Below are positions 14,240 through 17,893 of a stretch of 64,000 nt of DNA, one piece after another (position 1 is the stretch's first letter; each line of letters begins with the position of its first letter). The stretch spans positions 136,260 to 200,259 of the forward strand of contig NZ_BLBC01000009.1 of the NCBI RefSeq assembly GCF_009684755.1, in the 5' to 3' direction. Position numbers and translations under genes: made by a program. The stretch comes from Capnocytophaga felis (GTDB lineage Bacteria; Bacteroidota; Bacteroidia; Flavobacteriales; Flavobacteriaceae). A model generated the notes under the pieces. That model did not search any database and was not told where the DNA came from. It saw nothing but the letters and a program-made list of their open reading frames with translations.

Positions 14240-14265
14240 TACGCAAAAAGATTGCGTATCGCAAT
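14240..14265. promoter_or_regulatory. candidate operator of the RNA repair operon: three TTGCG half-sites
   Basis: TACGCAA (14240-14246) and TTGCGTA (14252-14258) form a perfect 7-base inverted repeat with a 5-base spacer; ATTGCG (14251-14256) and CGCAAT (14260-14265) form a second perfect inverted repeat with a 3-base spacer, sharing the middle half-site. They stand out as GC-containing words in AT-rich DNA, just upstream of a -7-like TTATTTTG (14268-14275), about 66 bases before hen1. This looks like a repressor or activator site; the binding protein is unknown. Confidence 0.55.
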
Positions 14266-14331
14266 ATTTATTTTGCATCGTCAAATTAACAGAAGAAGGA
14301 ATTCCTCTTCTTTAAATTAAACATCAAGAAA

Positions 14332-15645
14332 ATGATTATACAAATTCAATCAGAAAATCCGAAATTATTGGACATCCTTAACAAAAACCCAAACACCGAT
14401 TTCGGAATTTACGCAAAATCATTACGTAACGGACAAATCATAGGAAATACTTTAAATCCAAATCGTTACGATGTTATTTTTCAAGACACACGATACAGCT
14501 ATTTACCTGAGGAAAGCAACCAGATTGATTTTCAAAGTTATTGTTCTCCGCTTGTTATTTTGCACATTTGTAATGAGCTTTTTAAAGATTTGTTACAAGA
14601 GAAAGAAACCTATTTCAATCAATCCATCAAATGGCTGCATCAAACCAAACAAGAAGTTGATACAGAGGAATGTACCATTGAAGTAAAAAATATGTACATC
14701 AATTCTTCTTGGTACAAACACGGACATTTTTTGATGGAAAAATATTTCAAAAATGTGAAAATCACTCCTTTAATTGGAAATAACGTCAGCCTTTTCATAC
14801 AAGGAAATAATGTTTTTGAGGCTTTCAATTTACTGAGTTTCATTGCCGTAATTGTTCATATCACCAACGAATACGGAGAGTTCACGTACATTGATGATTC
14901 TTTTGCTCAAAAATATGCTCGTATTTTAACAAACATTGATAACGTTCCTTATTTCGTATTCTATCTGTTCATTAAAAAAGCGGTAAAAAGTGAACGCCAG
15001 TTAAATGAAATCAAACCGATGTTTGAGGCGTATTTCCGCAAACAAAACATTGAAATTGAATTCCAATTTTCAGACACACACGGAAGCCGTATGGATTTTG
15101 CTGTCAATCAGTTAGAATTTGATTTTCCTATTTTAGATATTGGTTGTGGCGAACTAAAATATTACCGCAGATTTATGCGAAAAAATTACAATTATAACCA
15201 TCCTTATTTTGCGGTGGATACCGCTCCTGAGGTACAAAAAATCGTAGAAAATTTTAAAGAAAAATACGATGCTGAAAACTTATTTTTCTTTAGCGATTTA
15301 TCTGATTTTAAATACGATAAACCTGTAAATATTTTACTAACAGAGGTTATTGAGCATAACACGCCTGAAGAAGCTAAACGTTTGGTAAAACAATGTTTGT
15401 CATTCAATTTCAACAAGTTAATTATAACCACGCCAAATAGCGAATTTAATGTACATTATTTTGATAATGAGGAGAATATGCGACATTCTGACCATTATTT
15501 TGAATGGAATAAATCTCAGTTTGAGAGTTTTGTGAAAAATTGTCTGGAAGGTAAAAATTACAAATACACTTTTCACGATATTGGGGATAAAATCAATGAA
15601 ATTTGTCCTACCCAAGCGGTTGTAATTGAGAACAATAAAAAATAA
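14332..15645 (+). CDS. hen1: Hen1 RNA 3'-terminal ribose 2'-O-methyltransferase
   Basis: A 437-residue bacterial Hen1. In RNA repair it methylates the 2'-OH at the 3' end of a cleaved RNA before ligation so that the rejoined site resists the same ribotoxin. The N-terminal half (1-250) is the Hen1-N domain that contacts the ligase. The C-terminal half is the methyltransferase: SAM motif DIGCGE (269-274), then the metal-binding set Glu338, Glu341 and His342 in EVIEH, and His388 in RHSDHYFEW. It is the first gene of a tight operon: rnl starts 11 bases later. Identity is strong by motifs and by the two neighbours. Confidence 0.94.
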   Translation: MIIQIQSENPKLLDILNKNPNTDFGIYAKSLRNGQIIGNTLNPNRYDVIFQDTRYSYLPEESNQIDFQSYCSPLVILHICNELFKDLLQEKETYFNQSIKWLHQTKQEVDTEECTIEVKNMYINSSWYKHGHFLMEKYFKNVKITPLIGNNVSLFIQGNNVFEAFNLLSFIAVIVHITNEYGEFTYIDDSFAQKYARILTNIDNVPYFVFYLFIKKAVKSERQLNEIKPMFEAYFRKQNIEIEFQFSDTHGSRMDFAVNQLEFDFPILDIGCGELKYYRRFMRKNYNYNHPYFAVDTAPEVQKIVENFKEKYDAENLFFFSDLSDFKYDKPVNILLTEVIEHNTPEEAKRLVKQCLSFNFNKLIITTPNSEFNVHYFDNEENMRHSDHYFEWNKSQFESFVKNCLEGKNYKYTFHDIGDKINEICPTQAVVIENNKK

Positions 15646-15656
15646 AATCAACAACA

Positions 15657-16841
15657 ATGGAAGATAAAAATATCATCAAAAAAAGAATTGATTGGTTCTG
15701 TAAAAATAAAATAAATGCTTTTTCTCCGACCATTTCTCCTGCTCCTAAATCATTGGAAAGAAATGAAATAGAAAGTTTGTACGAAGGAATTTTATGGTTT
15801 TTAAATGCGGGAGTTTCAGAAATAGTAATCCAGAAAAAATATATGGGTTCGTATTGTGATATTTATTTACATAAAAATCTGGAAGAAAGCTATTTAGTAA
15901 GCCGAAACGGATATCAAATCAATCATTTGGATAAAGAAAAATGGACCAATGCTTTAAAAGAACTTCACGCTCGGTTTTCATGGGAAAATACGGAAATTCG
16001 TATTATTCAATCAGAATTGATGCCTTGGTCGGTTTTAGGTAAAGGATTGATTAACAATGAATTTTCAGGATATTATATTTCGCACCAAATCCATTGTGAT
16101 TACTTAAAGGAATCTAACTTGTACGAAAAATTAAACAAAATCAAGCAAACGCCTGAATTTATTTGTTTTACAGAAGATTCTAAAACGTTGTCAGCAAAGG
16201 AATTAAAAGAAAAATACCCAATGCACGTTATCCGTCAGTACGAAGCGGTAAAAAAATTCAAATTTTTGAATCTGGAAAATTATCAAAAAAACATACAACT
16301 ATTTAAAAAACAATTAGATGTATTCGGAAAAGATGATGAAATGTATTTCAAACCTTTCAATATTCTAAAAGAAATTCATTCGGACGGCTTAGAAACTTTT
16401 ATAAATGACAATTTAAGTTTCAAACAAGTAAACGACGATAATTTTTTACACTATAAATTTGAAAATCAGGAAGATTTTGAGCAGAAATTTCCGGAAATTC
16501 AACATTGGGTAAATCAAGTAAATCAAAGCAATGAAGAAGGCGTGATGATAAAACCCCGAACTGCTTTTTTATCCGGTATGCCTCCAGCGTTCAAAGTTCG
16601 GAATAACGATTATTTAACACTCGTGTATGGAATTGATTTTCAGGATAGATTACAAGAAAATATAGCCAAAAGAAACATAAAATCAAAATTAAAATGTTCT
16701 GTCAATGATTGGGCTATCAATCAAAAAATGATTAAAACGCCTTATAAACAAATCAATGAAGAAAATTATTACTTCAAAAATTTGGTACTTGACAGAATTT
16801 TAGGAGAAGAAATTGAAAAACAATTAGATAGCAGACTATGA
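15657..16841 (+). CDS. rnl: RNA ligase Rnl of the Pnkp1-Rnl-Hen1 repair complex
   Basis: A 394-residue ATP-dependent nucleotidyltransferase that seals 5'-phosphate and 3'-OH RNA ends. Motif I is KYMGSY with the adenylated Lys61 (a Pnkp-ligase-type KxMGS in place of KxDG). A Pnkp-ligase-like motif III, ELMPWS, lies near residue 120, motif IV is EEGVMIKPR near 295, and motif V FKVRN follows near 314. The protein thus resembles the C-terminal ligase domain of the one-piece bacterial Pnkp, here split off as its own gene. Its last codons overlap the pnkp1 start (ATGA), implying translational coupling. Family known, to my recollection, from Capnocytophaga gingivalis. Confidence 0.92.
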   Translation: MEDKNIIKKRIDWFCKNKINAFSPTISPAPKSLERNEIESLYEGILWFLNAGVSEIVIQKKYMGSYCDIYLHKNLEESYLVSRNGYQINHLDKEKWTNALKELHARFSWENTEIRIIQSELMPWSVLGKGLINNEFSGYYISHQIHCDYLKESNLYEKLNKIKQTPEFICFTEDSKTLSAKELKEKYPMHVIRQYEAVKKFKFLNLENYQKNIQLFKKQLDVFGKDDEMYFKPFNILKEIHSDGLETFINDNLSFKQVNDDNFLHYKFENQEDFEQKFPEIQHWVNQVNQSNEEGVMIKPRTAFLSGMPPAFKVRNNDYLTLVYGIDFQDRLQENIAKRNIKSKLKCSVNDWAINQKMIKTPYKQINEENYYFKNLVLDRILGEEIEKQLDSRL

Positions 16842-17779
16842 CACGACAAAATATCAACAAACATACATTTGCGAAATTGCTTATTTTAGTGGGAGCTCCG
16901 GGTTCAGGAAAATCCACTTTTGCTAAATATTTTTTACGTACTGAAGACAATTGGGTGCGTGTGAATCGTGATGACTTTCGGACGATGCAATTCGGGGACA
17001 CGAAAATGAATTCCTTCTATGAAGAACGCATCTCAAAAATGGTGGAAGCCTCCGCAATTGCACTTTTGAAAAGTAAAACCAATGTGATAATTGACGCTAC
17101 CAACTGCGGACTTCGTACCATTGAAGATATGATAGAAACTTACACAGAATACGCCGATATTCAATTTAAAGTATTTGATTTACCGCTTGCAGAACTCGTA
17201 TCACGTTGCGATAAACGCAATACGGAAATCGGGAAATTTATTTCAAAAGGAGTGATTGAGAAATATGTTAATCAGTTGCGTTTCACAAAAGAGAAATTTG
17301 ATTTTCAGCCAATTCCAAGGAGATTAAAAGAAACTGAAATTAAATACGTTACACAAAGTAAAAATCTGCCAAAAGCTATAATTTGTGACTTAGACGGCAC
17401 TCTTTCCCTTTTAAACGGTCGTGACCCTTACAACGCCTCAACTTGTGACAACGATTTGTTAAACGAACCGGTTGCAAAAGTATTGAGAATGGCTAAAAAT
17501 GAGGGATATAAAATAATTTTACTTTCAGGTAGAGAAAATATTTATCGCGAGCCTACTGTCCGTTTTTTGGAAAAACATCATATTGATTATGACTTACTTA
17601 TAATGCGAAATGCAAATGATTTTCGCAAAGATAGTATCATCAAACGAGAAATTTTTGATAACGAAATTCAGGGAAAATATTTTGTAAAATTTCTTTTAGA
17701 TGACAGAAATCAAGTGGTAGATATGTGGCGAAAAGAACTCGGATTGCCTTGTTTTCAAGTAAATTACGGAGACTTTTAA
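16838..17779 (+). CDS. pnkp1: polynucleotide kinase-phosphatase Pnkp1
   Basis: A 313-residue two-domain end-healing enzyme. The N-terminal P-loop kinase has GAPGSGKST (19-27), the RVNRDDFR segment (41-48) and VIIDATNC (83-90), and would phosphorylate the 5'-OH. The C-terminal HAD phosphatase has CDLDGT with Asp184 and Asp186, LLSGRE near 228 and LLDDR near residue 288, and would remove the 2',3'-cyclic or 3'-phosphate. This order matches T4 Pnkp and differs from the trifunctional Pnkp of Clostridium thermocellum, whose phosphatase is a metallophosphoesterase. Together with Rnl and Hen1 it supplies all steps of RNA repair. Confidence 0.93.
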   Translation: MTRQNINKHTFAKLLILVGAPGSGKSTFAKYFLRTEDNWVRVNRDDFRTMQFGDTKMNSFYEERISKMVEASAIALLKSKTNVIIDATNCGLRTIEDMIETYTEYADIQFKVFDLPLAELVSRCDKRNTEIGKFISKGVIEKYVNQLRFTKEKFDFQPIPRRLKETEIKYVTQSKNLPKAIICDLDGTLSLLNGRDPYNASTCDNDLLNEPVAKVLRMAKNEGYKIILLSGRENIYREPTVRFLEKHHIDYDLLIMRNANDFRKDSIIKREIFDNEIQGKYFVKFLLDDRNQVVDMWRKELGLPCFQVNYGDF

Positions 17780-17885: not shown

Positions 17886-17893
17886 TAAATTTG
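17886..17893 (+). promoter_or_regulatory. -7 element upstream of pheT
   Basis: TAAATTTG fits TAnnTTTG, 39 bases before the pheT ATG, showing that pheT need not be read from the RNA repair operon. No TTG at the expected distance. Confidence 0.5.

What the first reader, a model, noticed from the sequence alone, without database searches (positions are those of the whole stretch)
14332..17779. Complete three-gene RNA repair operon Hen1-Rnl-Pnkp1
The genes supply kinase, HAD phosphatase, ligase and 2'-O-methyltransferase with intact active-site motifs, in a tight operon (11-base gap, then ATGA overlap). The split architecture (separate Pnkp-like ligase, T4-like kinase-phosphatase) is the Pnkp1-Rnl-Hen1 type reported as a heterohexamer from Capnocytophaga gingivalis, so the enzymes are not new, but databases often label them hypothetical. 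No ribotoxin lies beside it, so it should guard tRNAs against toxins of rivals, a stand-alone immunity system.
Basis: partly seen in the sequence, partly recalled or inferred. Interest (0 to 1): 0.7.

Follow-up and report, generated by a model that had tools for sequence, protein, structure and literature searches.

The report
RNA repair operon with shared switch
A mouth bacterium carries a known three-enzyme kit that mends cut RNA, and a 19-letter DNA switch in front of it recurs before RNA-repair genes in many related bacteria, which suggests that these genes are turned on together when nucleic acids are damaged.

Summary
The operon is real and intact: hen1 14332-15645, rnl 15657-16841, pnkp1 16838-17779. 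All three proteins are orthologues of the crystallised C. gingivalis Pnkp1-Rnl-Hen1 complex; the enzymes are not new. The published main text puts hen1 far from rnl-pnkp1. Here they are joined, as in 41 of 46 loci; a split hen1 was seen only in five Capnocytophaga genomes.

It recurs (at least 13 of 14 positions) before the first gene in 39 of 56 upstream regions, each time with TTTG 13 or 14 nt behind; shuffles give about none. In relatives it also precedes a T4-like RNA ligase, RlaP, TROVE, RtcB and a tRNA-like RNA. In 20 Capnocytophaga genomes, palindrome-plus-box (up to one mismatch) and one WYL-family regulator occur in the same seven.

Best reading: a known repair complex inside an apparently undescribed RNA-damage regulon, probably WYL-controlled. 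Binding, direction and inducer are inferred. No toxin lies beside it; "stand-alone" is not supported.

The parts
14240..14258 (.). 19-bp perfect palindrome TACGCAA-N5-TTGCGTA, candidate operator of the RNA-repair regulon
   Evidence: exact; identical in two close relatives; at least 13 of 14 positions before the first gene in 39 of 56 regions; with up to 2 mismatches 29 of 55 regions against a maximum of 5 for 300 permuted half-sites
14268..14275 (+). TTATTTTG, the window's form of the Bacteroidota -7 promoter box (consensus TAnnTTTG, recalled), 9 nt behind the palindrome
14332..15645 (+). hen1: 3'-terminal RNA ribose 2'-O-methyltransferase with N-terminal ligase-activating domain
   Evidence: PF22032 Hen1_N 208.7 bits; 4XRP chain C E 1.3e-210; E338, E341, H342, H385, H388 the same in 9 of 9
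15657..16841 (+). rnl: ATP-dependent RNA ligase of the Pnkp ligase type, nucleophile K61 by alignment
   Evidence: PF16542 66.8 bits; 4XRP chain B E 1.1e-208; alignment to bacterial Pnkp ligase
16838..17779 (+). pnkp1: T4-Pnkp-like 5'-kinase and HAD 3'-phosphatase, overlaps rnl by ATGA
   Evidence: PF25109 170.8 bits, PF13671; 4XRP chain A E 3.4e-162, T4 Pnkp 1LTQ E 4.9e-40
17886..17893 (+). TAAATTTG, a full match to the -7 box consensus before the next gene pheT; suggests that the operon ends with pnkp1

Best explanation
[quoted passage not shown] Pnkp1 phosphorylates the 5'-OH end and removes the 2',3'-cyclic phosphate from the 3' end of a cut RNA; Hen1 methylates the 3'-terminal 2'-OH; Rnl, activated by Hen1, seals the break. 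These steps are shown for the C. gingivalis proteins in print and inferred here from orthology. Transcription starts at a promoter whose -33 region is taken up by a 19-bp palindrome. A WYL-family regulator, encoded elsewhere in this genome (G000:C4:34992-35990) and near the operon in several relatives, probably binds it as a dimer and activates, or derepresses, the promoter on sensing damaged nucleic acid. The same switch serves other RNA-repair genes in Bacteroidota, so the operon is one limb of an RNA-damage regulon. The palindrome and its promoter geometry are shown by sequence; the regulator's identity rests on co-occurrence and gene proximity; binding, direction of control and inducer are inferred.
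For: Orthology and intact sites. The Pnkp1-Rnl contact residues named in the 2015 paper are kept in the window at 8 of 8 positions, one as K for R. All three genes together in 9 of 20 genus genomes, all three absent in 11 of 20. Palindrome in 39 of 56 upstream regions, 39 of 39 with TTTG 13 or 14 nt behind (ties between sites went to the one with the box); 40 rounds of shuffled upstreams gave 0 regions 39 times and 1 region once. Of all 111 sites in 72 loci, 104 have that TTTG on one side; assigned targets are hen1 (39), a RING-type gene with its leader (29 sites in 19 loci), T4-like RNA ligase (16), TROVE (4), RlaP (3), RtcB (1) and others. In C. gingivalis both split pieces carry it. WYL orthologue and palindrome-plus-box occur in the same 7 of 20 Capnocytophaga genomes; Fisher p 1.3e-5 if genomes were independent, which they are not. 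WYL genes of this family lie in the fetched neighbourhood of 15 loci. The 30 PDB matches of the WYL model with E up to 0.001 are all DriD, PafBC, CapW or BrxR. DriD binds a 20-bp pseudo-palindrome overlapping the -35 element and is activated by ssDNA (PMC12340889).
Against: Four Capnocytophaga genomes with all three genes (G010, G013, G015, G018) lack the WYL orthologue and a clear palindrome-plus-box, so the switch is not required. 17 of 56 regions miss it; two of those have under 75 nt of upstream sequence. 23 of the 39 positive regions are Flavobacterium, so they are not 39 independent events. In the genus scan, 33 sites with up to one mismatch stand against 12 for the reversed control pattern, and only 13 of the 33 have a box; sites with two or more mismatches were not sought genome-wide. 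In the window genome the WYL gene is not next to the operon and no palindrome-plus-box was found in the 15 kb around it. The tree does not prove that the six genus proteins and the operon-adjacent ones form one clade. The WYL model has low confidence (pLDDT 60, pTM 0.33; TM to query 0.22-0.29). No expression or binding data were available.
Confidence: 0.75

Rival explanations
1. A stand-alone immunity operon: constitutive repair of tRNA cut by toxins of competing bacteria, with no regulon.
For: No toxin among the ten neighbours scanned. The palindrome is missing before the operon in G013 and G015, which keep it. The 2015 paper assumes damage by toxins of nearby species, without in vivo proof.
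Against: A promoter-linked palindrome found from Capnocytophaga to Dysgonomonas, Saprospiraceae and Chitinophagaceae and shared with other RNA-repair genes.
Confidence: 0.12
2. The palindrome is a real operator but is bound by a regulator other than the WYL protein.
For: The WYL gene is not adjacent in the six Capnocytophaga genomes looked at, and shows no palindrome-plus-box nearby. Co-occurrence in 20 related genomes can follow descent.
Against: Same 7 of 20 genomes; WYL gene in the fetched neighbourhood of 15 loci; target length and promoter position like those of DriD.
Confidence: 0.2
3. The inverted repeat acts as a hairpin in the 5' leader RNA, for example as a site where the repair complex regulates its own mRNA.
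For: Perfect 7-bp arms around a 5-nt loop.
Against: A TTTG at a fixed 13 or 14 nt behind it in 39 of 39 regions puts the repeat upstream of the likely transcription start. The same module precedes genes with unrelated leaders.
Confidence: 0.03
4. The operon answers an anticodon nuclease of the cell itself (PrrC/RloC-like), as in T4-PrrC conflicts.
For: PrrC-like AAA_13 proteins (PADLOC PDC-S06) occur full length in G005 and G015, which have the operon.
Against: No AAA_13 match in the window's genome. Full-length matches: 2 of 9 genomes with the operon, 1 of 11 without; any match: 3 of 9 and 3 of 11. Only this one nuclease family was searched genome-wide.
Confidence: 0.08

Closest known systems
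C. gingivalis Pnkp1-Rnl-Hen1 complex (PDB 4XRP, 4XRU; PMC4411300)
   Different: Genes joined in one operon here; the paper's main text says that rnl-pnkp1 is far from hen1 and infers assembly order from that. No operator is described in the parts that I read (1-4 of 6)
Bacterial Pnkp-Hen1 heterotetramer
   Same: Four activities and a Hen1-type methyltransferase (PMC4411300)
   Different: There kinase, phosphatase and ligase are one polypeptide with a phosphatase of another superfamily; here separate Rnl and HAD-type Pnkp1 (NCBIfam TIGR04075: Rnl 50.7 bits, Pnkp1 32.2 bits, cut-off 750)
T4 Pnkp and Rnl1
   Same: Pnkp1 is T4-Pnkp-like (1LTQ, E 4.9e-40)
   Different: T4 Rnl1 is another ligase family; in relatives a T4-like ligase is an extra gene behind the same palindrome. 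T4 has no Hen1 (recalled)
Salmonella rsr-yrlBA-rtcBA operon under RtcR (PMC7790460)
   Same: RNA-repair genes with a Ro/TROVE protein and a tRNA-like Y RNA under one damage-responsive regulator (passages)
   Different: There a sigma54 activator with a CARF domain; here a palindrome at a housekeeping-type promoter and a WYL protein
DriD, PafBC, CapW, BrxR (WYL regulators)
   Same: WYL and WCX domains in the window-genome protein; winged-helix-like N-terminus in a weak model of a Flavobacterium relative; PDB matches; DriD's target overlaps the -35 element
   Different: Those control DNA-damage or phage-defence genes (listings, and recalled); here the linked genes are RNA-repair genes

Membership tests
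[quoted passage not shown]
[quoted passage not shown]
   (roles recalled)
[quoted passage not shown]
   8 of 8 positions, one as K for R; in the one Flavobacterium Rnl aligned, 3 of the 4 Rnl positions differ or are missing
[quoted passage not shown] repair only with all three proteins | not testable with these tools
   shown for C. gingivalis in PMC4411300
[quoted passage not shown]
   joined here; hen1 upstream of rnl in 41 of 46 loci
Pnkp-Hen1 system | Kinase, phosphatase and ligase in one polypeptide | tested here: not met
   separate genes; TIGR04075 far below its cut-off
WYL-controlled regulon | WYL regulator with DNA-binding domain in the genome | tested here: met
   G000:C4:34992-35990, 457 bits to the profile of operon-linked WYL proteins; WYL and WCX; winged helix only from a weak model of a relative
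WYL-controlled regulon | Shared palindrome at a fixed promoter position before several target genes | tested here: met
WYL-controlled regulon | Regulator binds the palindrome and answers to a ligand | not testable with these tools
   co-occurrence only
Anticodon-nuclease counter-system | PrrC/RloC-type nuclease (AAA_13) in the same genome | tested here: not met
   other nuclease families not searched genome-wide

The most novel reading that the evidence does not exclude
Across Bacteroidota a WYL-family activator that senses broken nucleic acid switches on an RNA-damage regulon through the palindrome TRCGCAA-N5-TTGCGYA placed over the -33 element: the Pnkp1-Rnl-Hen1 complex, a T4-like RNA ligase, RlaP, TROVE/Ro, RtcB, and a non-coding RNA with a tRNA-like domain lacking the anticodon arm. 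This would be an SOS-like response for RNA.
Probability: 0.5. Interest if true: 0.82.

Novelty: new variant of a known kind. Interest (0 to 1): 0.6.

Why it matters
The 2015 paper states that the in vivo substrates of this complex are unknown and that the damage is hard to reproduce in the laboratory. A defined DNA switch and a candidate sensor turn 'when is RNA repaired, and what is repaired?' into ordinary promoter experiments: find what induces the palindrome genes and sequence the RNA ends that appear. It also names candidate partners of the complex and weakens a premise of the published assembly-order argument, since the split hen1 is the exception in the loci seen here.

Tried and rejected
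Sigma70-type promoter scan: 19 sites against 20.3 expected, no signal. The overlapping palindrome ATTGCGTATCGCAAT (14251-14265) is not kept in the two closest relatives and was dropped for the 14240-14258 repeat. A second 13-of-14 site inside hen1 (14410) has no promoter box and lies in a conserved coding stretch; taken as chance. A simple empty site was sought: among the genomes with the operon, sucC and pheT flank it only in the window, G019 and G005; in G016, without the operon, they lie about 11 kb apart with bamA and uppS between, so gain and loss cannot be told. The stop codon reported in pnkp1 of G013 lies before its start codon. ARAGORN misses the tRNA-like RNAs that Rfam finds. NCBIfam named neither the WYL protein nor the 257-aa protein. 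The structure model of the WYL family is weak, so its fold matches serve only as family support. Papers: PMC4411300, parts 1-4 of 6 and passages; PMC11208441, PMC7824862, PMC4012209, PMC7790460 and PMC9503650, passages; PMC12340889, abstract, outline and passages; the other papers as search listings only. Burroughs and Aravind 2016 (PMC5062991) was not seen, only recalled and met in reference lists; it may describe some of these neighbourhoods. 'Not found in print' rests on searches.
Full report
Observation. Pfam, NCBIfam and PDB comparisons identify Hen1, a Pnkp-type RNA ligase and a T4-like kinase-phosphatase. Each aligns over nearly its whole length to the crystallised C. gingivalis proteins. 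Catalytic positions are intact, and the Pnkp1-Rnl contacts named in the 2015 paper are kept at 8 of 8 positions, one as K for R. One hen1 match was found in the genome at E up to 0.01. The next gene, pheT, has a full TAAATTTG box of its own, so the operon probably ends with pnkp1.

Distribution. In 20 genus genomes, all three genes are present in 9 and all three absent in 11. In 397 genomes drawn evenly from the family, 3 have Rnl at E up to 1e-5: the window's, G005 and one Flavobacterium (the name). A scan of named genomes with an Rnl alignment gave 46 loci: Capnocytophaga, Flavobacterium, Dysgonomonas, Bacteroides, Taibaiella, Niabella, Arachidicoccus, Apibacter, Saprospiraceae, a Prevotella MAG and a few other MAGs. 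More distant ligases occur in 3 viral contigs, 5 phage records, four of them over 300 kb, and 5 plasmid records, two of which are annotated as the fused Pnkp. The 2015 paper knew 10 species.

Gene order. In 41 of the 46 loci hen1 lies upstream of rnl; four of the other five are Capnocytophaga with hen1 elsewhere, and one contig begins too close to rnl to tell. A pnkp1 match lies downstream in 45 of 46. A few have an inserted gene, for example a 5'-nucleotidase between hen1 and rnl in L056. In the genus, 4 of 9 genomes have the joined order (G000, G005, G015, G019) and 5 have hen1 elsewhere (G006, G010, G012, G013, G018); in G013 the two pieces are about 1.2 Mb apart on one contig. The joined order is therefore the common one and probably ancestral (inference). 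The 2015 main text describes only the distant arrangement and infers from it that Rnl and Pnkp1 assemble before Hen1; its supplementary figure was not seen.

The palindrome. Aligning the upstream region with two close relatives showed a fully conserved block with the repeat TACGCAA-AAAGA-TTGCGTA at 14240-14258. A scan of the other loci found it again. In the definitive count I took the window, 13 genus stretches and the 42 loci L049-L090, leaving out L043-L048 and L032 as duplicates and L091 as too distant: 56 upstream regions, split genomes giving two each. 39 have at least 13 of 14 positions of T[AG]CGCA[AG]-N5-[TC]TGCG[CT]A within 700 nt: 23 Flavobacterium, 6 Capnocytophaga regions from 5 genomes, 3 Dysgonomonas, 2 Taibaiella, and one each of Bacteroides, Niabella, Saprospiraceae, Arachidicoccus and a Prevotella MAG. 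In all 39 a TTTG lies 13 nt (11 cases) or 14 nt (28 cases) behind the palindrome; where sites tied in score, the one with the box was taken. Forty rounds of mononucleotide shuffles gave 0 regions 39 times and 1 region once. In an earlier count with up to 2 mismatches, the real half-site was found in 29 of 55 regions, while 300 permuted half-sites gave a mean of 0.07 and a maximum of 5. The 17 misses are: G015; both pieces of G013; hen1 of G010 and G018; rnl of G010 and G018 (12 of 14, box not in place); rnl of G012 and the Apibacter locus (12 of 14 with the box); L049, L050, L053, L057, L060, L081 and the two viral loci. L057 and L060 have under 75 nt of upstream sequence; L057 has the palindrome before pnkp1 and L053 before RlaP.

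Geometry. TTTG is the end of the Bacteroidota -7 box TAnnTTTG (consensus recalled). The box begins 9-10 nt behind the palindrome, whose centre is thus about 19-20 nt upstream of the box, where the -33 element should be. That fits a DNA operator better than a leader hairpin. The window's box, TTATTTTG (14268-14275), departs from the consensus at its second position.

The regulon. Across 72 loci (window, genus stretches, L049-L091, and stretches around other sites) there are 111 sites of at least 13 of 14, 104 of them with the TTTG in place on one side. Fifteen of these loci were fetched because of the palindrome or the WYL gene, so they are not independent evidence; the RtcB, the 257-aa and the Capnocytophaga RING targets come from them. 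Assigned targets: hen1 39; a RING_SCO0854-like gene 29 sites in 19 loci, with a leader of about 190 to 900 nt; T4-like RNA ligase 16; TROVE 4; RlaP 3; a 257-aa protein in the window genome and its two nearest relatives 3; a 256-aa protein 2; and one each of RtcB, pnkp1, a 182-aa gene that leads rnl-pnkp1 in C. gingivalis, and a 194-aa gene; four sites have no target, one of them inside the RtcB gene. In C. gingivalis both split pieces carry the element, which would keep the parts of one complex co-expressed.

The regulator. A WYL-family gene lies in the fetched neighbourhood of 15 loci. A profile of eight of them finds a full-length orthologue (over 440 bits) in six Capnocytophaga genomes: G000, G004, G005, G006, G012, G019. 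In G014 it is interrupted by 10 N. The next best are 297 bits (G003), 271 (a second G006 gene) and 270 (G001); most other matches are near 100 bits. In the genus scan there are 33 sites with up to one mismatch, against 12 for the reversed control pattern. I looked at each of the 33: 13 have a promoter box, and these lie in exactly the seven genomes above; the other 20 have none, most of them inside open reading frames. In a tree the four next-best genus proteins form their own supported branch, but the tree is midpoint-rooted and open at that fork, so it does not prove that the six and the operon-linked proteins form one clade. Fisher p is 1.3e-5, which overstates the case because the genomes are related. 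The closest solved relatives are DriD and PafBC by sequence and DriD, PafBC, CapW and BrxR by fold, from a low-confidence model. DriD binds a 20-bp pseudo-palindrome overlapping the -35 element and activates on binding ssDNA (PMC12340889). That WYL regulators may sense RNA with cyclic ends and control RNA repair has been proposed in general terms (PMC9503650).

Interpretation. The enzymes probably work as published. What is new here is where they sit in the cell's wiring: one limb of a co-regulated set of RNA-repair genes with a candidate sensor. Regulation by the WYL protein and the inducer are predictions. Results against: G010, G013, G015 and G018 keep the operon without a clear switch and without the WYL orthologue; in the window genome only two palindrome-plus-box units were found (hen1 and the 257-aa gene); RlaP is absent there, while RtcB is present on another contig and was not among the palindrome sites.

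The ribotoxin question. The ten neighbours scanned show no toxin. Genome-wide I tested only the PrrC/RloC-type family AAA_13: no match in the window genome; full-length in G005, G015 and G008, partial or weak in G004, G007 and G012. There is no association with the operon: full-length in 2 of 9 with and 1 of 11 without; any match in 3 of 9 and 3 of 11. Other toxin families were not searched. Whether rivals' toxins, phage or self-inflicted damage is the natural cue remains open.

Verdict. Ordinary as an enzyme system, an orthologue at 68-77% identity to the C. gingivalis copies. The operator and regulon lift it. I found no paper that describes them in nine searches of the held library; the main review of the field, Burroughs and Aravind 2016, did not come up in those searches and was not read.

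Noticed in passing
L061 2759-2876, L064 1624-1740, L082 387-504, L132 6750-6869 (-), L133 5870-5991 (-): tRNA-like RNAs of 117-122 nt (Rfam tRNA 44-48 bits, missed by ARAGORN) in 5 of 9 loci searched, with acceptor, D and T arms but about 65 nt in place of the anticodon arm, between the palindrome promoter and a RING_SCO0854-like gene. Burroughs and Aravind 2016 reported a novel tRNA-like molecule (recalled, not seen); it may be the same.
   Followed up: partly
24 of 185 loci, e.g. L061 2683-3059, L132 6713-6815: Repeated 20-nt box GGTCAA-N7-TTACTTC, mostly 4-7 copies per Flavobacterium locus (one copy in L075) and 2 in the Capnocytophaga RING loci, inside and around the tRNA-like RNA; none in the window.
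   Followed up: partly
G000:C14:76741-76759; ORF L128 from 5920 (-); also L129, L130: Second palindrome-plus-box unit of the window genome: a protein of about 257 aa with no Pfam or NCBIfam family (the G005 copy was scanned), conserved in the two nearest relatives.
   Followed up: partly
L131 2152-3576: In G014, which lacks the three genes, the exact palindrome lies 57 nt before an RtcB gene that sits next to a restriction-type methylase gene.
   Followed up: no
L099, L100, L101: PrrC/RloC-like AAA_13 ATPases (PADLOC candidate PDC-S06) in G005, G015 and G008; in G015 on the same contig as the repair operon, about 19 kb away.
   Followed up: partly
L054, L084: Taibaiella loci with a second pnkp1-like gene upstream of hen1 and a T4-like RNA ligase upstream; L084 also has further small genes that look like nucleotidyltransferases by eye.
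   Followed up: no
L089, L090: Large viral contigs (335 kb and 185 kb) with hen1 and rnl but no pnkp1 match in the stretch fetched, and without the palindrome.
   Followed up: no
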